Assembly: GCA_027575765.1 (NCBI GenBank)
Contig: JANBPT010000487.1
Location: forward strand, 1-33,816
Reading direction: 5' to 3'
Source of the DNA: Tieghemiomyces parasiticus
Taxonomy: Eukaryota; Kickxellomycota; Dimargaritomycetes; Dimargaritales; Dimargaritaceae
DNA: 33,816 bases
Part shown: positions 6,013 to 28,540 of the stretch, piece after piece
Layout of the letters: each line of letters starts with the position of its first letter
Position numbering within the stretch: the first letter of the stretch is position 1
Notes under the pieces: model-generated
Database searches by the model: none
The model's input: only the letters and a program-made list of their open reading frames with translations
Told to the model about the DNA's origin: nothing
Program-made: the position numbers and the translations under genes

Positions 6013-6600
6013 AACTGAGAGGACGGGGAGGGGGGCAGAAGAGAAGGTGGAGAGCAAAGCCGCGGTGGTGGAGTGGTTTTGGGGTGCAGGCGAAGTGAAA
6101 CGGTAGGCGGGCAAAGGGGCGGGGGCGGAATGCAGGGAGGAAAGGGGGAGCGAAAGGGCGTTGAATGGGGCAAGAGAAGGAGAGAGAGGGAGAGGAGTCA
6201 CAAGGGCAGCTATTCGGGAGCCGGAGTGCGGAGGATTGAGAGAATGCAGAACAAATGGGGGAGAGCGGGAGAAACTAGGCCGTGGTAAATGCGACGGTAT
6301 GGGCCGGGAATCCTGTTATGTGGAGGTGGGTGGGCGGGGACAGCGGCGCGGGTACCAAGAAGAGGCAACAGCGCCAAGGGTAATGGCGGGGGGGGGGGGA
6401 ACTGCGGTAGGCGACGGAAAGGCGGGGGTGTAGGGGTGCCCGGAAGGCAGCTGCGAGTGGAAGGGAAAGAAGTGGGTATTATCTACCGATAAATACGAGG
6501 GAGGCGCGGACGCAGTAGAAAAATATTTGTGTGTTACAAAGCAGGCAAACGGGAGGGAGCGGGGAGATATATAGGGGAGAGAATAAAGGACCGAGCAGCT
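6013..6600 (-). promoter_or_regulatory. Pyrimidine-rich leader/promoter of the SSH4-like gene
   Basis: Immediately upstream of the ATG the minus strand is CT-rich for several hundred bases (the plus strand reads GA/GG-rich). The same asymmetry precedes the phosphatase gene at 29987. This is typical of fungal leaders. No clear TATA box sits at a fixed distance. Confidence 0.4.
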
Positions 6601-9534: not shown

Positions 9535-10984
9535 ATGCTAGCCAGGTGCCTCGTAAAGCTAGGCCGACCGGCTGCCTGGGCGACGCTGCTCTCTGATCAC
9601 TACTTTGCTAGGGCACCGACCTCCATTTCCTGGATTTTAACCCGCATTGGCGCTGCCCGTCTACAGAGCACGGATGTGCCGTCCAAAGCGGAGCCCGCAG
9701 ATTGTACCGACCAGGCCACCGAAGGCCAAGCCTGTAAGTTAATTTGGACAGGAAGGCTTATACTCAAGGCTGGTTCAAACCCATCTCTCATTCGGACGAT
9801 TTGCCAAACCTCTCAAGGGTTTTGAACACCTGCGTTTAACTGATCTCCCCTTCACTTACGCTTGCCTTTCACTGCCACTAGCTTCGGCATCGAAGGTCAG
9901 ACCACACGGCACCTGGACCGACTATATCTACAGGCCCGCGACCCGGATTTGGAAACCCGAGGAGGATGAGCTTCTGCTCCAGGCGGTGAAGATTTACGGT
10001 CTCTACAACTGGAAGGCGGTATCCAAGGTCATCAATAAGGGCGGGGGTCCTCGCCAGTGCCACAAACGGTACATTTTCCTCACCCGCCACCAGCGACCCA
10101 AGCACGTATTTACGACCCACCACGATGAGGTACTGATGCGACTCGTCAAGGACATTGACCGGGACTGGTCCAAATTTTACTACCGACACCCGCACTTCAC
10201 GGAGCGAGAGATCCGCGGCCGGTGGTCAATTCTTCGGGTACCCCGTCAGGAGACGTGGAATCCTGACGAGTTGGGCCGGCTCCGGGCAGCCCTGAATACA
10301 CACGGAACCGAGAGCTGGCGGCAGGTGGCGATGGTGGTACAAACGCGGACAACGAAGGAGTGCTACACACGGTGGTTCGTCAGTCCCGTGCTCCAGGCGA
10401 AGCAACCGTGGAGCCGCGCCGAGGACGTCAATCTGATCATGGCCGTATTCGAGTTTTCGCGGCCGATCGTACAGGTGATACCGCTATGGAGTTTACTCTG
10501 TGAGCGTTTGTTCCAGGCCCGGGGAAGAGTGAGTCGATCGGGATCCGAAAGTGAATCGAAAGAGGAGCATAAGGAGGAGGAGGAGGAGGAGGATGAAGAT
10601 GTGGACCCCGAACCTGAGGATCCTAACGCCGAACCTCCGCGTGAGGTCTGGCACAACGTGGCCCTTCAGCTTCCGGAGCCCATGCGCCATCACCCACAGC
10701 ACTGCCTCCAGCGCTGGCGTACGCTATGCAACTGTGCCACCACCGCCGCAACTCTGGATCCGGCCACGCTGGACCGGCTCGAAGCTCTCCGGCAGGACCG
10801 CGAGGTCATTGACACGGTAGCGGCCGAGGCCGCTGGGGCGCAGCTGGACGACCTGAACCTGACCCAGGTTTTGCGGTACTTGAGCGACCGTGAAGAGTTT
10901 GAAAATGCCATCATCCAGGCCACGGAGGCGTCCGCCGGGAAATCCTCACCAGTACCCCAGTTGCCCAAGACGGAAGAGGATTAG
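9535..10984 (+). CDS. Multi-SANT/Myb protein with predicted mitochondrial presequence (paralogue A)
   Basis: Predicted two-exon gene, 433 aa: exon 1 9535-9733, intron 9734-9881 (GTAAGT...TAG, phase 1), exon 2 9882-10984. Exon 1 encodes a leader with Arg/Lys at 4, 8, 11, 26, 37 and 42 and only one acid (Asp21) in the first 46 residues. It ends in ARLQST, which resembles an R-3 presequence cleavage site. Exon 2 holds SANT/Myb repeat 1 (about 90-133, W90 and W110), repeat 2 (about 141-184), repeat 3 (W192 to about 232), then a fourth SANT-like unit starting near W243. This unit is interrupted by a Glu/Asp-rich insertion (about 289-318) and resumes at VWHNVALQL (W323) to QRWRTL (W345). An AATAAA lies 51 bp past the stop. 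Myb repeats imply DNA binding; mitochondrial location is inferred from the leader. The nearest relatives are the genes at 11486 and 18904. No named family is recognised. Confidence 0.82.
10576..10602 (+). repeat. GAG-rich trinucleotide run coding poly-Glu/Asp
   Basis: A short imperfect GAG/GAT trinucleotide run lies inside the insertion of the fourth SANT-like domain of the gene at 9535-10984. It encodes a Glu/Asp tract absent from the paralogues. Confidence 0.75.
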
Positions 10985-11485
10985 ATCACTTTTTATTCGC
11001 AACAGTCGGATCCGTCCGACATTGTTAGCAGTAAAATAAATACAACACGCCCTATACGCCGCTGTGGACGGCGGGGCCCTTTGGCGACGGCTCTGACCTC
11101 TCCAGCCTTCCACAATGTAAATGGATTATCGTTCCAATATTCTACTGCTTACAGAAGGGGTAGATTCTTTTTCTGAGCCACTGAGACACGAAGCGGCCCG
11201 ACCAACCACATTTCCAAGTACACAATTCCCTTGGGCCTTCTGACCACCCGTAGCGTCACACTGGGTTCCTTGAGGATACCGAGGAATGCTGATTGGGAGC
11301 AGCTCGTCCTCACAATCATACTCAGCTGGCACCCCACTCCTCGTTCATACCTTTACGCTGGCGCTACTCAGCGGCCGGTAGACTTTTGTACCATAAATGA
11401 CCTCTGGGCTCGCCTGCCTCTTTGCATTTGCCTGCCTGCGTGATTCCGATCAAGTAGCACTAGAGTTTGGATCCCCCCACCCAAC
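10985..11485. other. Intergenic region between SANT/Myb paralogues A and B
   Basis: It starts with the 3' untranslated region of the upstream gene, including its AATAAA, and must contain the promoter of the gene at 11486. The short open frames show no motif, and no RNA gene is recognised. Confidence 0.5.
11035..11040 (+). terminator. Poly(A) signal AATAAA
   Basis: A canonical AATAAA lies 51 bp downstream of the stop codon at 10982-10984, a normal distance for mRNA 3'-end formation. Confidence 0.5.
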
Positions 11486-12740
11486 ATGGTCCTGTACCTC
11501 ATTGGGGCATCGGGCCGTCCCTTCGTCCGTGTCGTTCCAGCCTTCCGCGGTGTGCTATCGGCTTACTACTCCACTACCGCCGTGCGGCTCTCGAATCATG
11601 ACGTCCGACCCGACGGCGCGACTAGCGAAGGTGAGTGTCAAGGAATGTGGGCCGTGGCAGAAGACCGACGTGTCAAGGTAACGAGGATAACCAGCTCACA
11701 GCACAGACTGACTATCCCCCTTTCTTCCCCAACGTTTCACATTTCCGTCTCCTCCAACACACTCGCCCCGTTTCTCTGGTTGCATAGTCCCCCAGCCTAC
11801 GGTGAACCGACCCACCGCCCTGCCGTCCAAACCGCTGTCAGCATGGAACCCAGAAGACGACGGCCGACTGCTTAAACTGTGCAAAGAGCACCGGTTTAAC
11901 TGGCTTCGTTTAGAGGACGAATTTCCTGGATTCGACGCACGCACCATATCCGCGCGACACGTCATGCTGGTCAAGCTACAGGGTTCGCAAAGATGGAGCA
12001 CCCGGGAAGACCTCAGTCTCCGATCTGCCCTGGCTCGATTCGGCACGGACCGGTGGCTGGCAGTGTCCGAGGAAGTCGGCACCCAAGACCCGCTGGAGTG
12101 CTATAACCGCTGGTACACGACCCCTGCTAGTCGGCAGCAGGCTGGTCTGTGGCCCCTACCGCAGGACATGACCTTACTCCTGTGTATTCACGACGGCGTC
12201 CCCCGCCTGCTCGAGCCGGCGCCGGCCTACGTACAGCTATGCCAGCAGTTTCGCCGTTTTCAACCCAAGCCCTTTTTCGTTCCGGGCCAGTTCATTGATA
12301 GCAGCGCCATACCAGACCACCCACCGGGGGAACGGCCCAAGGACGGTGCACTACCCCTGACGTTTCGGTCGACACCCAATGCCGACCACGAGCCCAAGCG
12401 GCGGTTTTGGCACCACGTCGCCATCCAACTGAGCGACAAACAGTCCTACCACCCGCAGTTGTGTCGGGAACGCTGGCGAGTCCTCATTAACGGTGCCCGC
12501 GTGGCGGCTAAACATCCCCCGTCTACCCTTGCTCGGTTCCGCGAAGAGCGGAAAAGACTGGGCCGCATCGACCCGCTACAAGCTCGCGACATGGGACTAG
12601 CCGCAAGCAAAGATGAATTAATGGATTTAGAACGTGCTGTCAGCCTCGCCGATTTCTTTCACCGGATGGTGATGACCGCAGCGGAGGGCGGGTACAAGTT
12701 GCCCCGGCGACGGCCGGATCCAGCTGGCGTGGCTCTCTAA
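11486..12740 (+). CDS. SANT/Myb protein with predicted mitochondrial presequence (paralogue B, lacks repeat 1)
   Basis: Predicted two-exon gene, 365 aa: exon 1 11486-11630, intron 11631-11787 (GTGAGT...TAG, phase 1), exon 2 11788-12740. The leader has Arg at 11, 15, 21 and 34 and no acidic residue before Asp39. Its Gly-Arg-Pro at 10-12 matches paralogue A, and YYSTT near 27-31 resembles a cleavage region. The first Myb unit (W68, W87) aligns with repeat 2 of paralogue C (shared FPGF and RH motifs). The next (W118 to W157, ECYNRWY) aligns with repeat 3. Repeat 1 is therefore missing, and nothing in the 157-bp intron encodes it. A fourth SANT-like unit starts at W170 (LLLCIHDGVPRLL), has a long insertion, and resumes at RRFWHHVAIQL...CRERWRVL, followed by a helical C-terminal tail. 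DNA binding is likely; mitochondrial location is inferred. Confidence 0.82.
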
Positions 12741-13431
12741 AGGACCAGTGAAGCCACAGAATAGTCTGATGATCCGCCAAGATGCGGTGGCGAGACGATG
12801 CGGGTGATCAGTATGTAGGTTTGGGACGTCCTTTTTTTTTTTAATCATACCGCACTCACTCCATGTCAGCTCGATTTAATGGGGCCGCGGTCGGACAGGC
12901 CTCCCAGCCACATATCCACCGGCATGAGTAGATGTGTACCGATAGCTATGTTTGTGTTGACCACCGCCGTCAACTGATTCCCTGATTTGAAACCCTCCCC
13001 GCCCACGCCAACTTTGCCTAGCTCATTGCTCGACTGCATTCTATACGCCAATGATTTATACCACAATACAGTGGTAAAAAAATAACCCCCACCTAATGTT
13101 TTCACATTTAGTATTGTATTTTTCAATCACGCCGAGCGTTGCACACTTGTACCCACTCATTATTTCAAGTGGTAGGCCTAATTTATACCTTGCTAACCAT
13201 GCAAATTGCAAGGTATCTGTTGAGTATTGGCAACAGTAGAGCGGGGAAAAGAAGGGATCGCCCGTTTAGTAAATTTTAGGGAAGGTAATTTTAATAGTTG
13301 AGCAGTCTAGCAGTGCTCTACCTTAATAATTCCAATAGCTTAACAGGTTCGTACAATACCATCATCTTTTGACCACGTCGACTAGTGACTGTGGCATGAA
13401 TATTGGCAATGTCGTAAGCGCCATACTGTTC

Positions 13432-13451
13432 GGGAAGCTGAGCGGCTTCCC
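13432..13451. repeat. Perfect 7-bp hairpin
   Basis: GGGAAGC and GCTTCCC are separated by six bases in non-coding sequence. Its function is unknown and it may be chance. Confidence 0.5.
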
Positions 13452-14102
13452 CTAATAACGGTACCTGCCAATCTCAGTCAATTTCTAGCCTATGCTAGAG
13501 TGGCACACCCTGGGTAAGTAACCTCAGCGTGTTCAGGCTAGGTGGGGTTCAGACAAGATGATGTGCGCATAATACCAAACGACCTACTCTGTAATGTCAT
13601 TGCAATTGGCCCATATTGTCCCTTTCTCCCAGGTGAATTGAAGTCGAGCTAGTCATTCTTGCATCAGGAGCTAGATATAGTTCAGTACTACCACCTCTAA
13701 AAAAATAATGACCTATAAATGGATATCACTATTACTTAGAGAGATAGATGGGACACTGGAAAGTGAAATCGTGATAATTTTTAGCCGTCACTGCATTTCC
13801 ATCCGGATGACACGCTGGTCATTTCGATGAAGCGAGTATCTTTCATCATTTGATTATGAACCAAGACACCAATGTCTGAACCGGACAATAAAGCATATCG
13901 AGGCTCTTGGCAGTAGTAAACGAGCCCCAGTGAGTAATGGGTTGGAGTCTGTGTGGCCAGTGCCATGTAGCTGCCGTGGAAACATGTTCGACATCGAGGT
14001 GGTTTCTTTGCGTGGTCTAAGTAACGGGGGATAACAGAGGACCTTGGTATATGGCCATGTGGAAGAGGGGCTCAGTTGTAACCTGTAACCATTCGCTCAA
14101 CA

Positions 14103-14420
14103 TTAGGCCACTTGTGAAAAATTAGTTGCCCCTTCGGGAAAATTGAGGGTAAATTTAGAAACGCGGATATTTATACTGTTTTCTTTGGACTTGTATCGTC
14201 TGCCAAGCAATGCGGCTGAGGTGGATGGTACGAGCGGGTTCATGGTATACCCGGAAGTGCAAATCGCAAAGTACACTGGATCTGTCATTATGGAGAGAAT
14301 GTGGAACAGAGGAACGGAACGATAATCCGTGGCTGCCAATGCGCCGGTGGTAGGTGAGAAACTAGTTTTGTGGAAAGGTTCTGGGAAGTGAAGTTGGACA
14401 CCAATCGGCAGGTAGTACAA
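14103..14420 (-). other. Uncharacterised 105-codon open frame, possibly a relic
   Basis: The deduced peptide has mixed composition without low complexity, unlike most chance frames in the window, and ends at a stop before 14103. The open frame lies in an AT-richer block where long frames are less expected. I recognise no motif. It may be a decayed coding fragment or chance. Confidence 0.15.
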
Positions 14421-14597
14421 AATAGATCAGCTCCGCGTGTAGACTTGCTGGAGAAGGTATTCCAACCCAACTATTCAAGGCATTGGCGTGGCCCTACCCT
14501 GTGACCTTGAGCTTCTCAATTCACAGCTACTTGTATCTTAAACCGGCATGAAAAATATGAGGTTGCTTAAGCAGCTCACCAGAGGGAAGGCCAGGGT

Positions 14598-14954
14598 GTG
14601 GTGCTACCACTGTTGCAATTAAAAAGTAAGCTACTGGACCACGATTGGGTCGCCATGTTTGAAAGCCCAGACTTGATAATCCCCAGCGGAAGACCGACAG
14701 GCAATACCTTATGTTCCGAACGTGGCCTTCTCGTCCTCCGAGCTCTTAGTGATTGGGCCGGCTGGGCCCTTCTGATCGGTAGACCGTCGATACAGCTTGT
14801 AGTACTTTCCCCGTTCCGTCCAAGATCATCAATGTTGGTGCTTATAGATAATCAACTGAACGAAGTGGTCTCTTTGATACTACCTAATACCAGGGCTCCT
14901 ACTAAATACAGAAACGGCGCTGGGAAATTATGGCGTCATTCGGCAAAAACCTAA
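14598..14954 (+). other. Uncharacterised 118-codon open frame, possibly a relic
   Basis: The open frame encodes a hydrophobic, Leu-rich peptide of ordinary complexity with no recognisable domain and no clear promoter or splice context. It may be a fragment of a decayed gene or mobile element. Confidence 0.15.
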
Positions 14955-15416
14955 TCTGGCCAAAGGCATCACTAATCATCCTTATTTTAGGTCGACTGAT
15001 GTAGCTAAATCCGCTAAAGCAGGATGCGCAATGGTTGGTGACTGGCTTCTGACTGCTCATGTGAACCTCCTGGTGTCGACTATGTAGAGGTGGTTTATCG
15101 GTAAGGAAATGGAGTGACCAGCGGCGCCATGAAACTTCCCTCTATGGTGATGGAGTAGATCGCTCTACCAAGAATGTCCCCGTTGCCATTTTAGGAAGAA
15201 GGAGTGACATTGTCAGATCCTTGCCTTGCCACCTAGCACCCCTATGTAAACACTATTGACTTCACTCCTTATCGCCTTCTCATTCCAACTAGGGCCTTTC
15301 ACTCTGCGGCGTTTTGCCTCGCTAATCCCCTTGCCCTCCCTGCCCTCTATATTCTGTATCAGTATTATCATTTGCCTTCCGTTGCGTGGCCAGCGGCTCT
15401 GCGTCGGCTCGCAACC

Positions 15417-15425
15417 TATATATAA
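15417..15425 (+). promoter_or_regulatory. TATA-like element upstream of the protease gene
   Basis: A TATATATAA stretch lies about 280 bp upstream of the ATG at 15704. A second TTATAAA at 15669-15675 is only about 30 bp from the ATG, too close for a usual core promoter unless the leader is extremely short. Confidence 0.25.
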
Positions 15426-15703
15426 TCCACCGCCAGGAAGCTCGGTTCAGGACTTACCAAGCTGGCACCGCTTGACACCTCGTTAGACTATCACCTACAA
15501 GGTTCACTACCAAGCCTATCTTCCAATTTTGTTTTACCATACCAGAGAACCCATACCCTCGAATCATTATAACGAACGTGGCCCATATGCTTTCCTCTAT
15601 AATCTACTGATATCTAATTTGCCCCCCTAATCTGCGAGACCCTTCAACACGACAATACATCGGCCGACTTATAAACTTATTGTCAAAGCCTTGACCCAGT
15701 ACC

Positions 15704-18418
15704 ATGGCGCGCCTGACCGCTCTTTCCCTCTACGGCCTGGCCCTGTTCGCCCTCGCCGGTGCTGATACGTCCTCCGATGCCACCCCCTCTACCCCCGTAA
15801 GCGACTCGGACACTGACATCACCGCAACCCTGGGTTCGACCAACATCATTCCGGGCCGCTACATCGTCCAATTTGAACCCTCGGCTGCAACTACCGCAAC
15901 TTCCCTGACCGACAATGATATCGCCTCGATTCTCAGCGAGTCCGGCGTCGACCTGGAGGTGCAGTACACTTACGTTAACCCCAACTTCAACGCTGCGTCC
16001 ATCGTCATCAGCGGCAATGATACACAGCCCATCCAGGGCCTGGACGCCGTGGCCAAGGTCTGGCCAGTTTCTGTCATGAAAATCCCCGGCTGGAAGGGCG
16101 AGAGTATGAAAGGCCAAGGTTCCTTGCGAACGCCTCTCTCTGCTCGGGACAGTCCAAACCCACCGCAGAACCCTCCCCGGGAGAACTTGGCGCATAGTAT
16201 GACTGGCGTCGACCGCGCCCACCGAGAGCTCAACCTGCGCGGTCAGGGCATGAAGATTGGCATCGTGGATAGCGGTATCGACTACAATCACACCGCATTT
16301 GGCGCCTGTTTCAAAACCCCCGGCTGCCGTATCCAGTACGGCTCCGACCTGGTTGGTAACGACTACGACGGTGATACCAACCCCGTCGCCATCCCCAACC
16401 CTTACCCCTACGATGCCTGTATCGGACACGGCACCCACGTGGCCGGTATCGTCGCCGGCAGTGACGGTGTCTACCAGGGGGTCGCACCCAATGCCACCCT
16501 CGGCATCTACAAGGTCTTCGGCTGCGCCGGCGAAGGCAGCGTGGGCGAGGATGCCATCATGCTAGGAATGCAGGCGGCGGCCAACGACGGCATGGATGTG
16601 ATCAACGTTTCCGCCGGTGAACCCGGCCAGTGGGCCGCCAGCCCGGCCTCCTTGCTGGCCAATGCATTGTCGCTAAAGGGTATCACGGTCATGGCGTCGA
16701 ACGGCAACTTTGGGCTCGAGAATCTCTACGCCGACTCGGACCCGTCGGTTGGTACCGCCGCCTTTTCGGTGTCCAGCCACAATCCGATATACATCTGGGC
16801 CAACACCTTGAATGTGACCGCCGCCGGCCGGACCACCCAGATACTCCGTGCCAACGACTACAGCTTCCCCTGGCCGGCTTTCGTCTACTCCGGTACTCCG
16901 CTGCGTCGCGTAGCCGATTCCGCCGGCAAGTACACGGGGTGCGGTGGATACGCTACGGAGGCCCTGAAGGGCCTTATCGTCCAGGTTGACCAGACGAGTG
17001 ACTGTTCTGCGGACGATCAGGTAGATTTTGCTGCGGCCGCAGGTGCTACCGGTATTTTGTTCGCCATGCCCACGCAGAATCTTCCTCGTTACCTAGTTTT
17101 TGGAGCCCCCCATGAGATTGCCATCGGAATGGTGACGCTCAACGACGGCAACGCGATCCTTGCCATGCTCAAGGCTAATCCGCAGGGTGTGACCGTTACG
17201 AGTGACGACGAACTGCGCAAGTGGCGCCACACTGACGCGGGCCAGGTTTCGCTATACTCCAGCTACGGCCCCGATCCGGAACTCAAGCTCAAACCCGAGC
17301 TCAGCGCCCCCGGGGACCGCATCTACTCGACCTACCCGTTGTACGCCGGTGGCTACGACAATCTCTCCGGTACTTCAATGAGCACCCCCGTGTTGACCGG
17401 CGTGGCTGCCCTGATGAAGCAATACGGTATTCCCGCCGCCAGTCTAAAGCAGCGGCTCATGCAGACCGCCACGCCCTACTGCTTCAACAGCACCTTGTGC
17501 GACACCGTCACCACCCAGGGTTCGGGAATCATCAATATCATGAGCGCCCTCTACAGCCCCGTGTTCGCTAGCCTCAACGCCTTCGCCCTCAACGACACGA
17601 TCAACGGCAAGTTCAGCGGTGGTGTTACTAACCGCCAGACCGTGTTCACCAACCGTAGCAAACAGACCGTCCGCATCAACCTCTCTGCCGTCCAAGCCTA
17701 CTCGGTGTCGGCTCACTACGCCAACCAGTCTCTGTCCGATCTACCTCGCCGGAACACACAGTCCGCCTCTGTCACCTTCAGCCATAGCGTGCTCAACCTC
17801 GCACCCGGCCAGTCAACGTCTTGGGACGTCGCCTTCACCCAGCCTCGGGATCTGCCCGACAAGGAGCACTGGGTGTACAGCGGCTTTATCAACGCCACCA
17901 TCATCATCAACAACGCCGTCAACAGCACCCTGACTATCCCGTACCTTGGTTTCAAAGGCGACTACCGTACCGTCCCGATCCTGCGTCCCAACACCGCGGA
18001 GTTTCCCTACCTGGGTAGCTCCCAAACCAACGCTGCAGTCACCCAGGCGATGAGCGCCAACGCGGCGGGTTGCCCCGTCTTCGACATGGTCAACAGTCTT
18101 CCCACCCTGACAGTCGCCAAGGACCACCCCACGGCCCAGATCCGCGTTTATGTCACCAACCAGGCCACCGGCAAGACGTACTATGCCTTCGTCAACGATG
18201 TGCTTGATTACGCCCAGCAGAACTTCATCAGCTACCGCCCCAGTACCACCTTCACCTGGAATGGCTACGGATACACCAAGCCCAGCAAGAGCGACCTGGC
18301 CCGTCTAGCCAATGGTATCTACCGCATGAAAATCACCGCCTTGCGTCCCTTCGGTAACCCGAACAACGCTACCGACCTCGACAGCTGGACCTCAGCCTAC
18401 TTCCGTGTGTCCCGCTAG
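15704..18418 (+). CDS. Secreted subtilisin-like serine protease (S8 family, PA and Fn3-like regions)
   Basis: The protein is 904 aa with no intron. An N-terminal hydrophobic stretch (LTALSLYGLALFALAGA) is a signal peptide. An inhibitor I9-like prodomain follows (GRYIVQFEPSA, about 50-125). The catalytic triad is complete: Asp189 in IVDSGID, His242 in GHGTHVAG and Ser558 in SGTSMSTP, with the oxyanion Asn333 in MASNGNFG. A protease-associated (PA)-like insertion lies between Asn333 and Ser558, around 405-480. The C-terminal 300 residues resemble the Fn3-like region of minor extracellular proteases, with several N-glycosylation sequons. The expected role is extracellular protein degradation for nutrition, or host or prey attack. 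It lies between two SANT/Myb paralogues without obvious functional link. The coding sequence is strongly biased to C-ending codons, which suggests high expression. ATG 15704 is supported by the signal peptide starting there. Confidence 0.93.
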   Translation: MARLTALSLYGLALFALAGADTSSDATPSTPVSDSDTDITATLGSTNIIPGRYIVQFEPSAATTATSLTDNDIASILSESGVDLEVQYTYVNPNFNAASIVISGNDTQPIQGLDAVAKVWPVSVMKIPGWKGESMKGQGSLRTPLSARDSPNPPQNPPRENLAHSMTGVDRAHRELNLRGQGMKIGIVDSGIDYNHTAFGACFKTPGCRIQYGSDLVGNDYDGDTNPVAIPNPYPYDACIGHGTHVAGIVAGSDGVYQGVAPNATLGIYKVFGCAGEGSVGEDAIMLGMQAAANDGMDVINVSAGEPGQWAASPASLLANALSLKGITVMASNGNFGLENLYADSDPSVGTAAFSVSSHNPIYIWANTLNVTAAGRTTQILRANDYSFPWPAFVYSGTPLRRVADSAGKYTGCGGYATEALKGLIVQVDQTSDCSADDQVDFAAAAGATGILFAMPTQNLPRYLVFGAPHEIAIGMVTLNDGNAILAMLKANPQGVTVTSDDELRKWRHTDAGQVSLYSSYGPDPELKLKPELSAPGDRIYSTYPLYAGGYDNLSGTSMSTPVLTGVAALMKQYGIPAASLKQRLMQTATPYCFNSTLCDTVTTQGSGIINIMSALYSPVFASLNAFALNDTINGKFSGGVTNRQTVFTNRSKQTVRINLSAVQAYSVSAHYANQSLSDLPRRNTQSASVTFSHSVLNLAPGQSTSWDVAFTQPRDLPDKEHWVYSGFINATIIINNAVNSTLTIPYLGFKGDYRTVPILRPNTAEFPYLGSSQTNAAVTQAMSANAAGCPVFDMVNSLPTLTVAKDHPTAQIRVYVTNQATGKTYYAFVNDVLDYAQQNFISYRPSTTFTWNGYGYTKPSKSDLARLANGIYRMKITALRPFGNPNNATDLDSWTSAYFRVSR

Positions 18419-18903
18419 AGGAAACCGGCGAACTGTCTCGTTTGTTTTGGCCCCTGCACTCGGGATTTTGTTTAAAGGGAGGGATCTGGCTGGTGGAATG
18501 GCCAATGTTTATCCCCTCGGAAATTAGAATAAGGAATAACAGGTGGCTATTTTTAAAACTTCGCAACTTGACAGCTGGCACGTTACGGACCATGGGCAAC
18601 TATGGGGGTGACGAATCTCCGGTGGTACCCAGATGATAGAGAACCAGTGTTGGGGGAGATAATATCTGACTGCGGCAGCATCCAATTGGACATATACTGC
18701 GGCGCATTTAGGACGGTCATTCGATGCACCATTTTTTTTACACTACGCTAATAGTCTTGCCAACCTTATCCAGTCTATAAATTGCCCCTAACTTGGTTAG
18801 TCCCTTACTCGGCATTCCGTTCCTTCTACTGCATTTCCTTCCTGCGCCTATTTTCCAATACGGCCACCGACCACTCCGTCGTCCCCCTCGGTCCTCAATT
18901 GCC
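18419..18903. other. Intergenic region between protease and SANT/Myb paralogue C
   Basis: It holds the 3' end of the protease transcript and the promoter of the next gene. No gene-like frame is seen. Confidence 0.5.
18776..18781 (+). promoter_or_regulatory. TATA-like box of SANT/Myb paralogue C
   Basis: TATAAA lies 128 bp upstream of the ATG at 18904, followed by a pyrimidine-rich stretch. This is a plausible core promoter. Confidence 0.35.
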
Positions 18904-20386
18904 ATGTTCTTCCAACAGCTCGGGCGACTGGGTCAGCCCGCGGTGCGGGCCGCATTGGCCCCTGGCGCTCAGCCGACCTCAATGCGAGTCTTCAGCCAAG
19001 GTCTGCCTTCTGGAAAGGAGGCCCAGCAAGGTGAGTTATACACCCCTTCCCGCATTGACGTAATTGAATTAGGCTACGAGCCAGTGGCACCGAATGTCTA
19101 GAATCCCGGCCATCGGATCACCACTCAGGCGGGTTGGGCTTTTACCTAGCACCTAGACCTCGAAGGCTAACGACCCCTCGATCGCACGGTATTCCCTTCC
19201 TCCCCAATACTCAGAGGTCACCGCTAACTTGACGCCCGGTCCGATACCCGATATCGCTGCTGCGGACGGGCGAATTCACTGGACCCCTGAGCAGGACCAA
19301 CGGCTACTCGAAGCCGTCAAAGTCCACGGGGTTTTTAATTGGGGCCCCATTTCCAAGGCCGTTGGGGGCTTCGACTGGCGCGAATGCAACCAGCGCCTGC
19401 GCCGGCTAACCCATGATCCGGCCAAAGCTGACCTAAAATGGACCCCCAAGCGGGACGCCCGGCTGATCCAGTTGGTCGAAGAACAAGGTCCCAATTGGGT
19501 GAAACTCGAAAAGCTGTTCCCGGGGTTCTCGCGCTACGCCCTGCAGACCCGTCACACCCTGCTGACCTGTAAAGTAAAACCCCGCACCTGGGAACCGGAG
19601 GAGGTGGCGCGGCTCAAGCAGGCCCTGGCCGCGGCAGCCAAGGCGACCTCCAAAAAAACTGGCGATGAATCCGTGGTCCGGTGGGTCACAGTGGCCCGCA
19701 CGGTCCGGACGCGTACCGCCGCTCAATGCTATTACCGGTGGTACTCGTGTCCGTTCGACGGCGAACCGGCCGGGGCCTGGAAGATGCGAGACGATATGGC
19801 CCTACTCCTCATGGTCCACGACGGGGCCCCCCAGCTCCTAAATGAGCTGGCCATGTACCGGCCCTTCTGCCAGCGGTTCCGCCGGGTGCAAACGGCCCGG
19901 TTTTTCCGAGCAGGTGAACTCGGGGACCGGCCCCTGGGTCTGGAAAACACACCCCTGCCTGAAGCCTCGCTGACCTTCGCCGAAGCCGCGCCCCTCAGCG
20001 CCACCTCCACCGACGCTGACGCCGTCCCGACTGACGACCACGTTGACAGGGAACCGCCCTTAATGTTCTGGCATCGTATCGCCAATTTACTCAGCCAGCC
20101 GGGTCGGCCCGTGTACCACCCTTACTATTGCCGCCGCCGCTGGCGCCGCCTGGTCAAGGGGGCCGAATTAGTAGACCAAATGCCGCCGGCTGCCACGATC
20201 AAAATTAGCGAGGCACTGAAAAAGAAGAAGCTGACCGTCCAGGACGTCCAGGATCTGGGCGGCAGTAAGCTCAGTGAGAATGACTTGCCCTATCTTTTCC
20301 GCGCCCTGGCTCTTCCGGCCTTTATGAATCGTGTCATTACGACGGCTCGTAAGGGCGAGAAGGTTGAGGTGTTGACGCCGGTGTGA
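18904..20386 (+). CDS. Multi-SANT/Myb protein with predicted mitochondrial presequence (paralogue C)
   Basis: Predicted two-exon gene, 432 aa: exon 1 18904-19030, intron 19031-19214 (GTGAGT...CAG, phase 1), exon 2 19215-20386. The leader has Arg at 8, 15 and 28 and no acid before Glu39. It carries Gly-Gln-Pro at 10-12, matching the Gly-Arg-Pro of paralogues A and B. RVFSQG at 28-33 resembles an R-3 cleavage site. Repeat 1 runs from W64 (HWTPEQDQRLLEAV), repeat 2 from W117 (KWTPKRDARLIQLV) and repeat 3 from W167 to W217 (QCYYRWY). The split fourth unit starts at W230 (MALLLMVHDGAPQLL), has an Ala/Asp/Thr-rich insertion of about 70 residues, and resumes at MFWHRIANLL...CRRRWRRL. The C-terminus is helical and basic. 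This copy is the most regular and is the best family reference. DNA binding is likely and mitochondrial targeting inferred. Confidence 0.85.
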
Positions 20387-20866: not shown

Positions 20867-23800
20867 TCAGTTACCCTCAACGGTAGTGATTGTTACCTTG
20901 GGCTGTAGCAGGAGGTACAGTGCATTCAGACGGGAGAATAGGTCCGACCGGGTGAGCAGCTTGAGGTGGGTCTTGGGCGCCGATTTCCGTAGTACTGAGG
21001 GCAGGGCCTTATCCGCTGTGGACGTTTCCGTACTGGACAGTGCGGGGCATTGGCAGGGATAGATCTCTAAAGGTGTCGGTGGCGTCACACGGCTATTCGA
21101 TTCGAGGGCCGGTTCGATTGGGGCCGACGGTTCAGGGTTCAACATGGTTCCTGCCGAAGTGGTCGAGTCGGAGACCACCGGCTTGGCCTCTGCATCGGCG
21201 ACAACCTGGTCGTGAGTAGTCGCTGGTGGCGACGGCTGTGGCGTTGATGGTGATGGCTTAGCCTCCTTGGTCGTTTCGTTGGCTTGCACGGCCGGGGTGG
21301 GGTCCTCGTCCATTGAAGTAGCCTCGGTAGGAGCCACCACATCCGATGGGGCGGGCTCTACCTGAACCGGCGAAGACTTCACCCCCGTCGCTTCATCCGA
21401 ACCCCTTTCCTGCACCGGCTGCTGCGGCGGATGGTCCCGGCGCCACGTCGTAAACGTTACCAGGATATCGACGTAGATACGTTGGACTAATGTCTCAACG
21501 GCTTGCTTCTGCTCCCCATCAGTCGTAGTTAGGCGTTTTAGTTTCACGGCGTGAACCAGGAGAGCGAAGAGCTGGTACAGGCGGCGGATGACCAAATCGC
21601 CGCTAGCAGGCAGTAACCGGTAGGACCGTTCAGATGGTAGATAGGGTCCGCTAGGTCTGTCTGAGGCGGTGCCGGCAACGCTGGTACCACCCCCGCCACT
21701 CAGGTTATACTCCCCGCTTGAACTGTTCACCGGTGAACCCCCGCTGCTTTCGGGCATAGATGGAACCGCTGGTGTGCCGTTACCTGAGGCCGGGAATTGG
21801 TCCGCCGTACTGGTGAGCACAGTTATCAACCATTGCTCCAGGTCGGCGACCAATCGTTCAAACCGTTCCAGGCACAGGACGTGGACCAGAGAGGCCATCG
21901 TCGGAGTCGATTCACCATCCCCATCCGGTACCCCTAGCGCGGCGTTAGCGGGTAATTGGGCGACGGCGGCCTCGAGGGCACGACGGTAGTGCACATAGAG
22001 CTCTGCTGCGATCACGCGCGGGGCGATGAGGACGGTATCGAGTTTACGCAGGCGGTGGGCCACCATGAAGAGTCCATCCAGGTCGCCAGTCCTTTCGTAC
22101 AAGTCCAACAGGAGACGCAGGTACTTGTGAACGTAGTAGTAATGCTGGCCAGGTGGTTCCATCTCGGTCTTATAAAAGCTAATAAACGACTTAGTAACGG
22201 ACCGGGCGTTAAAGAGCGGGGCCAGCGCGTCGAGGGCCAACGAGTATTGGCACAGCACGCGGGCGCGGATCCAGGCCGTCCGGTAGACCGGTTTGTGGTG
22301 CCAGCGGCGACCGTCGATAGCGACTCGGATGAGTTCCAGATAGTCGAGAATCCGGTCGAAGGCGGCGCGCCCGGCTGGGTCCTGTGGCAGCGCACCAGTG
22401 TCGGCCCCTTCGCTGTCGGTAGGGGCTCGATTGGGGCGGGACCGGTCCTTACTGACCCGTACCGTCTGGATCTGCGCCAGTCGGGAGGCGTACCGGCGTA
22501 GGGCCCGGGGCTCGCCTCCGTCGACCTCTACCAGCCGGTCCAATTGGTCGAGGACGCTGTCGACCACGTCGACCGGAACGCGGCCCCGGTGGAGATCCTT
22601 GGCCAGGGACGACAACAAGGTGTACATCGGCTCAATCAGAGCATCCACGCCCGAGGACGAATCACCGGGTCCCGCGGAGGCGATGGCCCGTTGCAGGGAG
22701 CGCCACAGACACGCATAAGCCCGCAGCGGGGTAGATTCTAGTTTGCGGAGGCAGCGACCCAGGTACAGGTCGGCGGTCCAGGGCGGATACTGGTGCAGCT
22801 GGTTGAGGATGGTGGCCCGCGGGGTTGGCACGGAAGTGGCGTCCTCGGTTTCGCTACGCTCGTAGCCTTCGAGGGCCCGGGTGAAGAACTTGGCGGCCAG
22901 GCGATACACCTGAGCCTTGGATGGCATGGTCGGGGGCTGCGTGTGTAACGCCCGGGCACGGACCAGCCATTGTCGCTGTTTCTGTTGCCGCTGCACCTCG
23001 GCCTCTTCTCCGGACTGCTCCACAGTGCCATTAATCGCGGATGGCGTCGACACCAATGATCCGTTCGTGGCTAAAGTTTTATCGCCGACCTTGGGCAAGC
23101 ATACCCTAAGTTCCACCGGGGGGCGCGTCAGAAAGTAGAGAAACTGGCCCATCTCGTTCAGGAGGGCCGGTCGGTGCAATGGCGGGATGTAGCTGCCGGG
23201 TCCCGCCATGGGTCCCGCTGCTGATGCGTTACGCGACCGGCGATAGCACTGTAGGTAGGCCAAAAAGATGAGTCGGCAGTTCTCGACAATGTCGTCGGTG
23301 GCCTTGAGTAGGGCATTGGCCCGGCGCATCAATTTTTCTGCCACCTCGTCCCGGCACACGTTGGCTAAGCAGTACCATGCGACGGGTGCCGTCGGAGTTA
23401 CCGAGAGCTGGTTGCGGTACAAATCAATCACGGTGTCCAGATCATCCGGATCGCGGGTGGCGTTGCTTCGGATCCGCTGGCGCAGTTGGGTGTGTAGGGC
23501 GTACCCTTGGAGTAGATATGCGTGGAAGTAGACTGGCGCCAGGGTGGGGCCGCAGTCTAGGGCGGGTAGGAGGTAGGCGTAGCCGCCTGCACGCAGGACG
23601 GCCGGATCGTCGCTCAGCGCTGTCAACAGGTCCACCGGTCGATCTAGGTACTCCTCAATGTCACGTTCGTTTAGCGTCACACGGCCTGGGCATCGGGGGT
23701 GTATCAAAAAAAATAATTGGATCGGGTATGTTGGGAGTAAGGAAATCGGGTCAGTGAGTCAGCGAGGGACGGGAGGAGAGGGGTGCGGACAGCCGAGAAT

Positions 23801-26800
23801 GGACGACACCATTCACTCGCCCCGGTAGACACTCAAAGGGAACAAGTATTGTTTGAGTACTTACCGAGTTCTCTATGCGGATCACCAATGGCCTTCACAA
23901 TGGCTTCGAGGTTGCTACGCCACTCGGCGCCGACGTGGGCCTGGGGGCGGAAGAGACGCTCCGCGATCCGCGGTAGGAGCTGGTCAAAGAGATACGACGC
24001 GGCCGGGATATCCAATTCTAAAGGCTCGCAGTCGTGCTCCTCCAGGTCGCCATCCAGCCTCACATTGTAGAGGCAGTACAGGCATTGCAAGGCGTCGTGA
24101 TGGGTCTCCAGCGGCGGTGGCGGGGTTGCGTCGTCCCAGTGGATAACCTCAAAGGCCAGGGCCAGGAACGAACCCTTATCAACGGTGCACAGGCCCATCT
24201 GGCCCACGGTGTGGTGGAGGGTGCGGAGGTAGGCGCGCAGGGCCCCGACCGCCGTCATGACAGGCGGGGCGGTGCGCCACGCGGCGTCGAGGGCGCAAGC
24301 GTCCAGCGGAAGCGTGCCAATGTGGATTCGCTGCCGCCGGTGGGCAACGTGATCCGATAGCGGGTCGACGGCTTCGTCGGCGCCGCCGTCGATCGGCAAC
24401 GGCTGCGCGACAATATGGGGTGGGTTTGGTGGGAGGGTGTAGGAGGGGCGCGCCGGTGGGGCCTCCTGCATAAGGCGAACGACAGCCAACAGCTCCCAAC
24501 TGCGCACCATAAGCGTGTAGAGGGGTACCTGTATCTCCTCCTCGGGGAGGGACTGCAGGTGACCGTCGTAGGCAATGATATGCTGGGACAGGCGGGCGAC
24601 TAGTAGCAGAGCGTCCGGCGGTGGAGGAAACGATGATGAGGACGACTTAGGCGGATTAGAATGAGTCGATCGAGAGACTGTCCGGAGGTGACGCAACCAT
24701 GCTGGCACCGGCCGAGAAGAGTCCAGGCCGGCTCCGCACCCCTCCGTCTCTACCGCATCCTCATCCAGACGAGGCGCGCGCTGGGCTAGAATTGCCTGGG
24801 CCCCGGTCGTCAAATCACGAATCGTCGTATTGATTGCGGTCAGCCCGGCAAACAAGGCAGCCACGGCCAATGCCCCCGGTTTGGGCCGTACCGACGCGTC
24901 GGCGCCGGCTTTACCGCTCCGGGCGGATGGGAAAGTCAGGTCAGGCAATCCTTGGTCAATCTCGGTGGCAAGTGCAGTGACCGCCGTGCTCAGCCCGTCC
25001 ATCTGCGCCACTAGACCGGCCAGTTGACAGGCCCAGGCCTCGGCCGCATTGGGTGGGGATTTGCGCTGGTAGGCCCGTTGTAGGGTCTGCCAGACCACGA
25101 GGCGCCGGTAAGGGTCGAGCGAGGCGCCAGTGCTCGTCGCCTGAGCGGTTACCGCACTGGTAGAGTCCGCCGCGGCGCCTTCGGCGCGGAAGCGCGGGGT
25201 GCAGCCCGGCGTCATCGTCAGTGGAAACCCTTGCGCGTCAGCTGCCACGGCGGGTCGCAGCTGGCGGATGGCCTGTTCATAATGGCCGGCGGTGAAATCA
25301 GCCAGACCGTCGCGAAGACGCTGTTCGGTGGCGAGGTGATCGGCGAGACGGCGAGCCACGGTCTGCCCGAGCGTCGGCAGGAATCGGCAGTTGGGCAGGG
25401 TTACCCCCACGACCTCTGACGCTGCGAGGGAGCGGGCGGCGGCCAAGGTGGCGCCAAGTTGTCCGTCGAGAACCCCGACCTTGAGGCCCAACCAGTGCCG
25501 GCGGTAGACCAGGCACTGTTGCTGAGAGCCAGCACCGTCGCTGTCCATGGCATCTAGGTTCACTGCCAAAGCGGGCGAGCACTTGGCACCCAAGGCCATG
25601 TCCAGCTGGACAATAAGCCGGCCGAGGGTGGCCGCCATGGTTTCCGTGGCGGCCTCTTCCTCGGCCGAATCGACCGTGGCGGAGGTAGATCGGCTTCCAG
25701 CTTTGTTTTCCGGGCCACTCGTGGTAGCGGTGTCGGCTGCCATACTCAAGAGACCGTCAAGTAGAAACTCGCAGGTGCCGAGCAAGGCCCCCACCAGGGC
25801 CAGGTCGCCGGGGTGGGCCAGGTGGGACGGGGCCTCGACAATCTCATTAGCCACATAGGCGCGGATCAGCCAAAATAGATCCATGTGGCATATTTCGAAC
25901 GCTTCCCCCAAGACTTGACCGAAATCCGGGGCCCAACGGGTCGTGAGCCAGGAGGCAACGGGGGTTTCCGCCAGCCGCTCTCCACTACCACCGTCAAGAT
26001 CCTCCCCAGCGACCCAGCGGCGCCAGAACGGATCGGGCAAAAAGAAGCGCATGACGAAATGGCGCAGGTAGGTCGATGGGTCCGCCTGAGTGGCGTTGCA
26101 GACGGCCAGGAAGGCCGGCAGCTCACCGTCGTCGATGGGCGCGTCACTAGTGAGTCCCTCAGCGGGCATTAATTCGGCCAATTCCTGGGTCAGGGTGGTT
26201 ACCAGATCGACCTGTGCCGGTGATTGTAGTGGCTTGGACGAGTCGGCATCGAGGCACAGGCGAAGCCACGCTAGGAGGCGACGACCAAGCGGGGTGGCGG
26301 GTCGGCCGTATTGGATATACTGGCGCTGCGCAGTCTGGATGCTCACGGGGGCTTTGCTCCACACGCGCAGGATTCGTTCGGCCGTCCGGTCCAGGTCGGC
26401 CAGCTGGTCGGACGCTACGTGTGAGGCTGCCGGATGGTCCCGGTCCGATCCGTGCGAGGCCCCAGCCTCGGCCAGGTCCCACCAACCGAACCAGCGGAAG
26501 AGGGTGGCGAGGGCCCCGTCGAGTGCCCCATCCCAATTTTTAGCAGCGATGGTGGTCGCGGCGGCGGTACGGCCCGAGGTTGCCTCAATCGGCATGGTCG
26601 ATCCGGAGCGGCGGCTCATCTTGGGATACGCGGCAGTTCGTGGACTCTCCGGTGTCTCGCCGGCCACGGGGGACTGGCGTGACGTGGCACGGGTGAGTGA
26701 TGTGCTAGCAGGCCCCATGGACGAGGCGCGTTGCAATGGAACCCTGACGGGCACCCCGGTTCCGTCGTCTGATACGCGCCGGTTCTTGAGAGATGGGACG

Positions 26801-28540
26801 AGGTTTTTCGGTAACGGAGCGGTGCCGAGAGTAGGTGAGGTGGGTTGGGAACGCGTCATGGAATTCCTGGTCCGGAGGCGAGGCTGGGCCTCTTGACTTT
26901 GGGGTTCAATGCTGGCCGTGCTGAGTGCGAGATCTGACAAGGCCGAATCGGACATTTTACGTTTCAAGCCCGGCCGGGGACGGGTCAGTATGGGCATAAG
27001 GCTGGTGCGAGGGCCTCGCGGAAGGGTTGGGAGCGGAGGCAGGCCCGGTAGGTGGTGGGTTGAGTCACTTGGGCTTTGTGGGTCGTCAGGCGTGGGCTTC
27101 GCCGTGTCAATTTCCATCCTAGGGTCCCCATTTGACTGGGCGGTGCACAGGGTAATTGTGATTGGGGCACAAACCTCGTCCGGGTCACCCGCTGCTCGGT
27201 CACGATAGACGGTCAGTAGGAGTTGGCCCAGGGCCGTCCAAGTAGGAGTGACCAATTCATAGGCAGTCACGGGGGGAGTTGTCGATGGCGTAACAGGCGG
27301 AACCGCAGCGGCGGCCCGCGCGATAGAAAATACGGTAGGTGGCACTGGTGGTAGTCGGAATGCATGGGCCGGCGGTAGTTCGGGAGTAATGTACAGCGGC
27401 GGATCCAGGTAGGTTCGACAGGCGGCTTCGCTGGCCTCCAGGGTGGCGAAGTCGCCCGTGATGTACAGCAGACCCAGAAGCGCCTGGTAGGCCCACCACT
27501 GAGTGGGTTCAAATCGTGCAAAGTTTGGTGGAGTAAAAGTGGCTGTGTAATCGTCACCGTCATCCACGGAGCCCGACTTGGCACTATTGATTACCCGCTC
27601 CAGGGCAGCCCGAGCCAGGCCCAGCTGGTGGGTTTCGAGAGCCAGTCGGCCGATACGTAGCCAGAGTGTGGTATCCGACGCATCAAGTTCCGCCGCGCGC
27701 AGCAGGTAGTCAAGAGCCCGGTTACGCTGCACGGTGGATTCCGACTCCTGCTCCCTGGTAGGCAACAGCGACCTGGCATGGTCGTCGAGGGGCAGCGGGG
27801 TGTCGTGTTCCGCCACGCGAGCCTCATCGCAAAGAAAAGATGCGTAGTTTCGAAATACGTTGTAGAGGAGCTGCTCGATGCGGGCCTCATCCTCGTCACG
27901 AAATATGAGACCAGACTGGGAAGGCTTGGAGGGGACCGGCTTACCGTTGGGTACGGCGCCGGATCCGTGGACCGAGGCCCGGAGCCAATCGGCCTCCAGA
28001 ATCTGCTCCAGCAGCTCACGGGCGTCCTTCCGGCGGCCTTTGTTGTATAGGCGCAGCGCCTGGTTGTACCGATTGACGCTTTCGTCGATCTAAGGGAGGG
28101 TGTCATAAATAAGGCGGGCGGGTATATCAGGTAGAATAAAACGGTTAGGCCATCACCGGTGATAACTGTGAGGCTACTAGGTTCGCACCGTGAAATTGTC
28201 AAACCTAGGGCGTGCTAGGTTGCGTATTGGCACCGATGCGGAAATACTACGCACTTTTAATGCGGTATTGTGGTCGGTTCTACTAGATATTCTGAGGTCC
28301 TAGGGCCCGGCGTTCCGTTAGTATTCAGCCCCTACGTATAGTTGAGGCGTCCAGAACAAACGGGCCACGTCGGGCCATACCATATACGGTCGAAACCACA
28401 CGGCCTGGCTTCGGTATGCTTTAATCAAGCCGCGCCTGGAGGGCCTGCACACGGTAAACACTTACCAATTCGGGCACCTCGTTGTGAGTCTGGGGCAGAT
28501 CGTCGACATTCTCAACGTTAATGGGGGTAAAGCGGATCAT
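20867..28540 (-). CDS. HIR3: Hir3/Cabin1-type subunit of the HIR histone chaperone complex
   Basis: Predicted three-exon gene, 2372 aa: exon 1 28466-28540, intron 28090-28465 (376 bp, GTAAGT...TAG), exon 2 23865-28089, intron 23686-23864 (179 bp, GTAAGT...CAG, phase 1), exon 3 20867-23685. All junctions keep one frame and the total is a multiple of three. The N-terminus, MIRFTPINVENVDD, resembles the start of animal CABIN1 (MIR-type). TPR-like helices follow, such as the segment around residues 143-190 (RALDYLLRAAELD, LWLRIGRLALE). A Ser/Pro/Arg-rich segment near 370-540 and a Pro/Thr/Glu-rich tail near 2200-2330 look disordered; the rest is helical repeat. In yeast and animals this protein scaffolds the HIR/HIRA complex, which deposits H3-H4 independently of replication and controls histone genes. 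Length is close to CABIN1 and longer than yeast Hir3. The identification rests on the N-terminus, TPR layout and size, so it is good but not certain. Confidence 0.8.

What the first reader, a model, noticed from the sequence alone, without database searches (positions are those of the whole stretch)
9535..20386. Local family of multi-SANT/Myb proteins with apparent mitochondrial presequences
Three paralogues (9535, 11486, 18904) each begin with an Arg-rich leader nearly free of acidic residues, followed by tandem SANT/Myb repeats. The leaders carry Gly-Arg/Gln-Pro at exactly residues 10-12 and end in cleavage-like motifs (ARLQST, YYSTT, RVFSQG). This suggests common descent of the leader, not chance. 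Myb-type proteins are normally nuclear, so a duplicated mitochondrion-targeted set would point to an unusual mtDNA-binding system (nucleoid, transcription, termination or telomere-like function). The repeats and leaders are seen; the location and function are inference.
Basis: partly seen in the sequence, partly recalled or inferred. Interest (0 to 1): 0.8.

Follow-up and report, generated by a model that had tools for sequence, protein, structure and literature searches.

The report
Mitochondrion-targeted family of Myb-repeat proteins
A little-studied fungus carries a large, scattered family of DNA-binding-type (Myb) proteins, most of which start with the same kind of mitochondrial address tag, suggesting a set of regulators of mitochondrial DNA.

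Summary
The window is from Tieghemiomyces parasiticus (Kickxellomycotina; one search found the NCBI model of gene C's second copy, spliced as proposed). The three genes belong to a family of about 20 loci. Thirteen have an Arg-rich leader, 12 of them on a separate first exon. The intron after the leader is phase 1 in 12 of 12 genes. The first 40 residues hold 5 of 520 acidic residues, the bodies 553 of 4,585. With the chosen acceptors, the first Met of exon 2 lies inside the Myb array in 12 of 12 genes, so exon 1 must supply the start. The bodies are tandem Myb repeats, nearest in the PDB to SNAPC4 and c-Myb. A Linderina relative starts much like a presequence. A mitochondrial Myb family is the best reading; location is predicted, mtDNA binding is inference. 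Against: leader pN/pS between copies is 0.71, and amphipathicity rarely beats shuffles. A fourth, leaderless member lies at 32750-33307.

The parts
9535..9733 (+). Gene A exon 1: leader MLARCLVKLGRPAAW... (66 whole codons, phase-1 donor GTAAGT)
   Evidence: copy on C776 keeps frame
9734..9881 (+). Gene A intron, 148 nt
9882..10984 (+). Gene A exon 2: tandem Myb repeats, split last repeat with acidic insert, C-terminal part
11486..11630 (+). Gene B exon 1: leader MVLYLIGASGRPFVRVV... (phase-1 donor GTGAGT)
   Evidence: copy on C776
11631..11787 (+). Gene B intron, 157 nt
11788..12740 (+). Gene B exon 2: Myb repeats (no counterpart of the first repeat of A and C) and C-terminal part
18904..19030 (+). 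Gene C exon 1: leader MFFQQLGRLGQPAVRAAL...MRVFSQG (phase-1 donor GTGAGT)
   Evidence: same splice in the NCBI model of the second copy, P0001
19031..19214 (+). Gene C intron, 184 nt
19215..20386 (+). Gene C exon 2: four Myb repeats, the fourth split by a low-confidence insert, and C-terminal helices
32750..33307 (+). Gene D: short family member (185 aa) with the split last repeat and the C-terminal part only; no presequence-like leader
   Evidence: E 2.1e-18, 36% to C1112; 4 acidic residues in the first 40

Best explanation
The three genes belong to a lineage-expanded family of mitochondrial proteins. Each is made as a precursor whose first exon encodes a homologous N-terminal presequence. 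It is imported into the matrix and the leader is removed, in many members at an R-x-[F/Y/L]-S type site. The mature part is an array of about three or four Myb repeats, the last split by a flexible insert, followed by a helical C-terminal part. By homology with other Myb arrays it most likely grips DNA, so the simplest role is site-specific binding of mtDNA to regulate transcription, processing or maintenance, with different paralogues serving different sites. Shown: the family, the shared leader, the conserved intron phase, the Myb arrays. Inferred from sequence: import and cleavage. Inferred from homology only: mtDNA binding and its purpose.
For: About 20 family loci in the genome; clear leader in 13, on a separate exon in 12. 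Intron phase 1 in 12 of 12; in 11 of 12 the donor is the only GT[AG]AG of the leader frame past base 40. Acidic residues 5/520 in the first 40 positions vs 553/4,585 in the bodies; R:K 58:4 vs 442:235. R-x-[FYL]-S in 6 of 15 leaders vs 1.2 in shuffles. With the chosen acceptors, the first Met of exon 2 is inside the Myb array in 12 of 12 genes. NCBI model of gene C joins the exons in the same way. Leaders resemble the starts of an mtHSP70-like and an Abf2-like protein of this genome. A Linderina relative with a presequence-like start has a member of this family (L) as best match in T. parasiticus, and the long multi-Myb genes C599/C568 are not among its 8 matches at E 0.001. Myb arrays, nearest SNAPC4 and c-Myb.
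Against: No localisation data and no trained predictor. Comparison of copies for 9 leaders gives pN/pS 0.71, one-sided p 0.09, against 0.23 in exon 2 of 8 pairs, so constraint on the leader is not shown. For the candidate leader of C1112/C1046 the proposed frame has ratio 1.49, while another, stop-containing frame has 0.32. The hydrophobic moment clearly beats the leader's own shuffles only in C. One copy of gene H has a stop in the leader. D, C591/C330 and C1026/C131 have no leader. 16 of 78 non-coding ATG-ORFs pass the charge filter. If gene I starts at its internal MM it has 2 acidic residues in 40, as has the second copy of K. Linderina P0014 has 2 acidic residues in its first 40 and so fails the filter used here (they lie at 33 and 37); Calcarisporiella P0007 has 3 and best matches the long multi-Myb genes. 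An earlier in-frame Met lies upstream of the chosen acceptor in one copy each of G, C and J.
Confidence: 0.55

Rival explanations
1. The proteins are ordinary nuclear Myb factors; the Arg-rich N-terminus is a by-product of a GC-rich genome or a basic nuclear signal.
For: Myb proteins are normally nuclear (established knowledge); 16 of 78 non-coding ATG-ORFs pass the charge filter; leaders change fast between copies.
Against: Leader residues and intron phase are shared across paralogues whose full-length models are 24-34% identical to C. Arg far exceeds Lys (58:4), unlike typical Lys-rich nuclear signals (established knowledge). R-x-[FYL]-S motifs are in excess.
Confidence: 0.13
2. The proteins are shared between nucleus and mitochondria, with leaderless forms made from another start.
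For: Dual location is known for single plant proteins, among them the MYB factor AtAPL (PMC3457046, passages read). Some family members have no leader.
Against: With the chosen acceptors, the first Met of exon 2 lies inside the Myb array in 12 of 12 genes, so a leaderless form from exon 2 would be truncated. Other upstream first exons were not excluded, and one copy each of G, C and J has an in-frame Met upstream of the chosen acceptor.
Confidence: 0.1
3. The proteins are mitochondrial, but the repeats act as protein- or RNA-binding (SANT-like) modules, for example in ribosome or RNA processing, not as mtDNA binders.
For: Myb/SANT folds serve protein and RNA contacts in several complexes (established knowledge); spliceosomal Cdc5/Cef1 is among the matches. 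Lineage-expanded organellar families recall RNA binders such as PPR proteins (recalled).
Against: The best sequence and fold matches are DNA-bound Myb arrays (SNAPC4 7xur, c-Myb 1h88), though the fold scores are weak (best Foldseek E 9e-4). No binding test was possible.
Confidence: 0.22

Closest known systems
SNAPC4 (SNAP190), the multi-Myb subunit of the snRNA-activating complex
   Same: Several consecutive Myb repeats; profile match over three repeats, E 4.5e-32 for the whole chain; first Foldseek match 7xur (E 9.3e-4)
   Different: Much longer (chain of 1,469 residues) and a nuclear basal factor (recalled); the leader, the split last repeat and the C-terminal part of this family were not seen in the match
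c-Myb R1R2R3 and other R2R3 Myb domains
   Same: Repeat fold and C-x-x-R-W type third helix
   Different: Nuclear (recalled); base-contact residues were not compared by a tool
Reb1/TTF1-type Myb terminator proteins
   Same: Myb array; 5eyb among the fold matches; termination is a conceivable role
   Different: Nuclear rDNA (recalled); the rest of the protein was not compared
Abf2/TFAM, mitochondrial HMG-box packaging proteins
   Same: Nuclear-encoded mtDNA binders with a presequence (recalled); one Abf2-like gene with an acid-free start is in this genome (C577)
   Different: HMG boxes, not Myb repeats
mTERF and PPR families of plant organelles (recalled)
   Same: Large, divergent, organelle-targeted families of nucleic-acid-binding repeat proteins
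   Different: Different folds (recalled); no sequence relation tested
AtAPL, a plant MYB protein seen in nucleus and mitochondria (PMC3457046, passages)
   Same: Myb-type protein reported in mitochondria
   Different: Single protein with a nuclear function; the passages read report no family and no shared leader

Membership tests
Myb/SANT DNA-binding repeat proteins (PF00249/PF13921) | Repeats matching the Pfam models above the gathering score | tested here: met
   A, B, C above both cut-offs, D above that of PF00249 only (26.2 vs 24.4 bits); 12 of 12 members of A2 match both families at E 0.01 or better
Myb/SANT DNA-binding repeat proteins (PF00249/PF13921) | Sequence-specific DNA binding | not testable with these tools
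   Needs protein
Mitochondrial matrix precursors with cleavable presequence | N-terminal basic, nearly acid-free leader rich in Arg | tested here: met
   0-1 acidic residues in the first 40 in 13 of 13 leaders counted from the first ATG; 5/520 vs 553/4,585; leaderless members D, C591, C1026 do not pass
Mitochondrial matrix precursors with cleavable presequence | Amphipathic helix | tested here: inconclusive
   Hydrophobic moment clearly beats own shuffles only in C, others p 0.06-0.86; mtHSP70-like control p 0.07
Mitochondrial matrix precursors with cleavable presequence | MPP/Icp55 cleavage site | tested here: inconclusive
   R-x-[FYLI]-[SATC] at residues 15-70 in 10 of 15 leaders vs 4.1 +/- 1.7 shuffled; absent there in A, B, K, C1112, C547
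Mitochondrial matrix precursors with cleavable presequence | Import into mitochondria | not testable with these tools
   Needs an experiment; TargetP/MitoFates were not available
SNAPC4 | Consecutive Myb repeats of the SNAP190 type | tested here: met
   Profile positions 76-246 align over three repeats
SNAPC4 | Orthology to SNAPC4 | tested here: inconclusive
   Other genes (C599/C710, C568/C621) match the multi-Myb query P0007 better than this family; SNAPC4 itself was not used as a query and no tree with it was made
Mitochondrial telomere-binding proteins of linear mtDNA | Linear mtDNA with terminal structures | tested here: inconclusive
   C970 (27,272 bases, 23,635 held) has an imperfect palindrome at 27056-27272 and a plasmid-type RNA polymerase frame near its left end; linearity not shown

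The most novel reading that the evidence does not exclude
Kickxellomycotina fungi use a fast-diverging, partly clustered family of imported Myb-array proteins as site-specific controllers of mtDNA, an independent counterpart of plant mTERF/PPR families, perhaps kept expanding by conflict with selfish mitochondrial elements such as introns and plasmid-type genes.
Probability: 0.2. Interest if true: 0.88.

Novelty: new variant of a known kind. Interest (0 to 1): 0.66.

Why it matters
Known mtDNA-binding proteins of fungi are few (HMG-box Abf2, the RNA polymerase and its TFB partner; recalled), and Myb arrays are regarded as nuclear. A whole family of Myb-array proteins with a shared presequence would mean that one fungal lineage moved a nuclear DNA-reading module into the organelle and multiplied it. 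It makes a concrete test possible: which mtDNA sites do the paralogues bind, and does loss of one change a single mitochondrial transcript? Ten searches of an open-access library listed no paper that by title or abstract describes such a family. Several lists were cut (15 of 1,143 papers, 12 of 20, 10 of 13), and subscription papers and preprints are not covered.

Tried and rejected
Test of the leader between copies: pN/pS 0.71, p 0.09 for 9 pairs, so it does not show purifying selection. H was dropped (stop in one copy's leader) and K was dropped (no separate exon). Two earlier versions had errors: one search gave H an implausible value, apparently because the aligner drops the stop sign; one search read J one base out of frame.

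Hydrophobic moment: not discriminating. The charge filter alone: not discriminating for a single gene (16 of 78 non-coding ORFs pass). In one search less specific statistics were weaker than the adjacent-column one: the best single column was reached in 163 of 5,000 shuffles and the summed column agreement in 22 of 5,000.

C1112, C1046 and C547: more than one leader frame is possible and the frame test spoke against the proposed one. They are not among the 13 leaders, although C1112 and C547 were among the 15 with one frame.

Replacement of HMG packaging: not needed, because an Abf2-like protein is present (its second HMG box is my reading, Pfam listed one). Linear mtDNA: not shown.

Homologue searches: gene C alone found only its own second copy; alignment A2 found in addition only five proteins with the Pfam set of Cef1/Cdc5; a family consensus found 10 proteins, among them Linderina P0014 and Calcarisporiella P0007. 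In each only about 8,000 candidates were scored, and the word-based search is insensitive at 30-40% identity, so absence from other fungi means nothing. All three protein searches are used.

The VIA-align second look mostly covers model residues 61-164 and does not test the C-terminal part. The AlphaFold model is of moderate quality (pLDDT 64, pTM 0.52, 4 sequences).

The full statement, mtDNA binding included, now has 0.55; targeting of some kind (with the dual and the RNA/protein-binding rivals) adds up to 0.87.
Full report
What the window is. The window is contig C795 of a 46.5-Mb, 1,363-contig assembly. A search with gene C hit a 432-aa protein of Tieghemiomyces parasiticus at 98% identity, on a 93,602-base contig. 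C776 has that length and carries a second copy of A, B, C and D, so C795 and C776 look like two haplotypes; that is not proven. T. parasiticus is in the Dimargaritales, Kickxellomycotina.

The observation. Genes A, B and C exist as two-exon genes with good splice sites. The NCBI model of the second copy of C uses the proposed splice and begins MFFQQLGRLGQPAVRA. The bodies match Myb families and are paralogous. A fourth member, D at 32750-33307, has only the last, split repeat and the C-terminal part; it matches the C1112 subfamily at E 2.1e-18 and has no presequence-like start.

The family. Searches of the genome with C, A and C1112 give about 20 loci, most on two contigs that look like allele pairs: A, B, C, D, E (C343/C776), F (C408/C909), C191, G (C819/C425), H (C735/C540), I (C68/C1141), J and K (a divergent pair on C506/C898), L (C1012/C704), N (C1064), C1112/C1046 (two copies on C1046), C547, C591/C330, C1026/C131 (weak, E 2e-5 and 4e-5), C2/C600 and C1180. 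A clear leader was found in 13: A, B, C, E, F, C191, G, H, I, J, K, L, N. In 12 of these it is a separate exon; in K it is in the Myb exon. C1112/C1046 and C547 have candidate leaders in more than one frame. D, C591/C330 and C1026/C131 have none that was found. C2/C600 resemble F, but no exon 1 was found upstream. C1180 is interrupted by stops. On C776, E lies about 12 kb beyond D, so five members sit within about 36 kb, among unrelated genes.

Is the leader real and homologous? Four lines. First, residues: from the first ATG, G10 and R11 are each present in 7 of 13 leaders, and the best pair of adjacent columns is matched in 1 of 5,000 shuffles (the best single column in 163, the summed agreement in 22). 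Second, gene structure: the intron after the leader is in phase 1 in 12 of 12 genes; in 11 of them the donor used is the only GT[AG]AG of the leader's frame past base 40, while L uses GTAAAT. Third, start codons: in these 12 genes, with the chosen acceptors, the first Met of exon 2 is at residue 82 to 243 of the spliced protein, inside the Myb array, so exon 1 must supply the start unless another upstream exon does; one copy each of G, C and J has an earlier in-frame Met upstream of the chosen acceptor. Fourth, the annotated model. Full-length models are 24-34% identical to C and terminal branches of the tree are 0.8 to 1.9 substitutions per site, so the shared leader is old.

Is it a mitochondrial presequence? 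For: 5 of 520 acidic residues in the first 40 positions against 553 of 4,585 from residue 81 on (Fisher p 7e-21), and Arg:Lys 58:4 against 442:235. R-x-[FYLI]-[SATC] occurs in 10 of 15 leaders against 4.1 +/- 1.7 in shuffles, and R-x-[FYL]-S in 6 against 1.2; that this is the R-3/Icp55 motif is recalled. The starts of an HSP70 that I take as mitochondrial by its sequence type (C1106) and of an Abf2-like HMG-box protein (C577) in the same genome look alike, while those of cytosolic HSP70, BiP, PP2C, the SPRY protein, the subtilase and Myb C603 do not pass the charge filter. Against: 16 of 78 non-coding ATG-ORFs of the window pass that filter, and the hydrophobic moment clearly beats shuffles only in C. 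Comparison of copies gives pN/pS 0.71 (53 to 28 changes, p 0.09, 9 pairs), against 0.23 for exon 2 in 8 pairs, so the leaders change fast, as presequences are said to do, and constraint is not shown. One copy of H has a stop in the leader, and the second copy of K has 2 acidic residues. No trained predictor was available.

Relatives elsewhere. A family consensus found, besides P0001, a 548-aa Linderina pennispora protein (P0014) and a 571-aa Calcarisporiella thermophila protein (P0007) with many Myb repeats. P0014 begins MISRASNALALSKQCLLIARRTLAAPASS, presequence-like, without acidic residues up to position 32, but it has 2 in the first 40 and so fails the filter used here. Its best match in T. 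parasiticus is L (E 7e-11), followed by F and E; two non-family Myb loci, C687 and C113, are among the 8 matches at E 0.001, the long multi-Myb genes C599 and C568 are not. A profile comparison aligns it to the family over 172 columns, with an FP in the second repeat as in the family. P0007 is weaker: 3 acidic residues in its first 40, and its best matches are the long multi-Myb genes. The other proteins found (P0002-P0006, P0008-P0013, P0015) have 2 to 9 acidic residues in the first 40.

Fold and function. The model of the second copy of C shows Myb repeats at about 67-108, 120-160 and 170-220 and a fourth (233-246, 325-335, 345-363) split by a stretch that is under pLDDT 50 at 279-320, then C-terminal helices (moderate confidence). 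Sequence search puts SNAPC4 and c-Myb first; Foldseek agrees with DNA-bound 7xur and 1h88 on top, at weak scores (E 9e-4 and 1e-3). DNA binding is therefore the default reading; a protein- or RNA-binding role is not excluded. The nucleus encodes an RNA polymerase of the single-subunit type used by mitochondria, RrnaAD-family genes at C605 and C1105/C1009, one of which may be mtTFB, and the Abf2-like protein, so the usual machinery seems present and the Myb set comes on top of it.

Mechanism proposed. Import by the presequence, cleavage in the matrix, binding of mtDNA through the Myb array, action on transcription, processing or maintenance. The number and divergence of the paralogues suggest that they read different sites. 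The first two steps are inferred from sequence, the others from homology.

Known or new. A single Myb-type protein in mitochondria has been reported: AtAPL by GFP (PMC3457046, passages read). The text of a review of mitochondrial HMG proteins (PMC7463775) does not contain the word Myb (found by term search, not read through). Ten library searches listed nothing on a Myb family with presequences, judged from listed titles and abstracts; some lists were cut. I rate it a new variant of a known kind: the module is known, the address and the family, as far as these searches reach, are not.

Noticed in passing
G000:C970 (27,272 bases), L068, L072, L079: Mitochondrial contig, about 80% AT in the 23,635 bases held, cox1 in at least five pieces with TGA in frame; near its left end a plasmid-type RNA polymerase frame (match 1528-2709), at its right end an imperfect palindrome of about 217 bases.
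   Followed up: partly
G000:C540 (L016) against C735 (L013): One copy of family gene H has a stop codon in the leader while the other is open; its first Myb repeat also looks degenerate.
   Followed up: partly
G000:C1180 (L024) and C2/C600 (L010, L011): Decaying family copies: C1180 is interrupted by stops, C2/C600 resemble gene F but no leader exon was found upstream.
   Followed up: partly
G000:C577:36300-37450 (L088): An Abf2/TFAM-like HMG-box protein with an acid-free start MLHRFVTLAAPARRLAVQPRILAQAARAF....
   Followed up: partly
window 15695-18418 (+): Subtilase (Peptidase_S8 plus fn3_5) between the Myb genes B and C; its start looks like a secretion signal by eye.
   Followed up: no
window 20867-28089 (-): Two long frames (963 and 1,418 aa) without a Pfam match at 1e-4, possibly one HIR3/CABIN1-like protein (resemblance recalled, not tested).
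   Followed up: no
window 4093-6315 (-) and 29954-31516 (+): A SPRY-domain protein (SSH4/EAR1-like by recall) and a PP2C phosphatase lie near the Myb genes.
   Followed up: no
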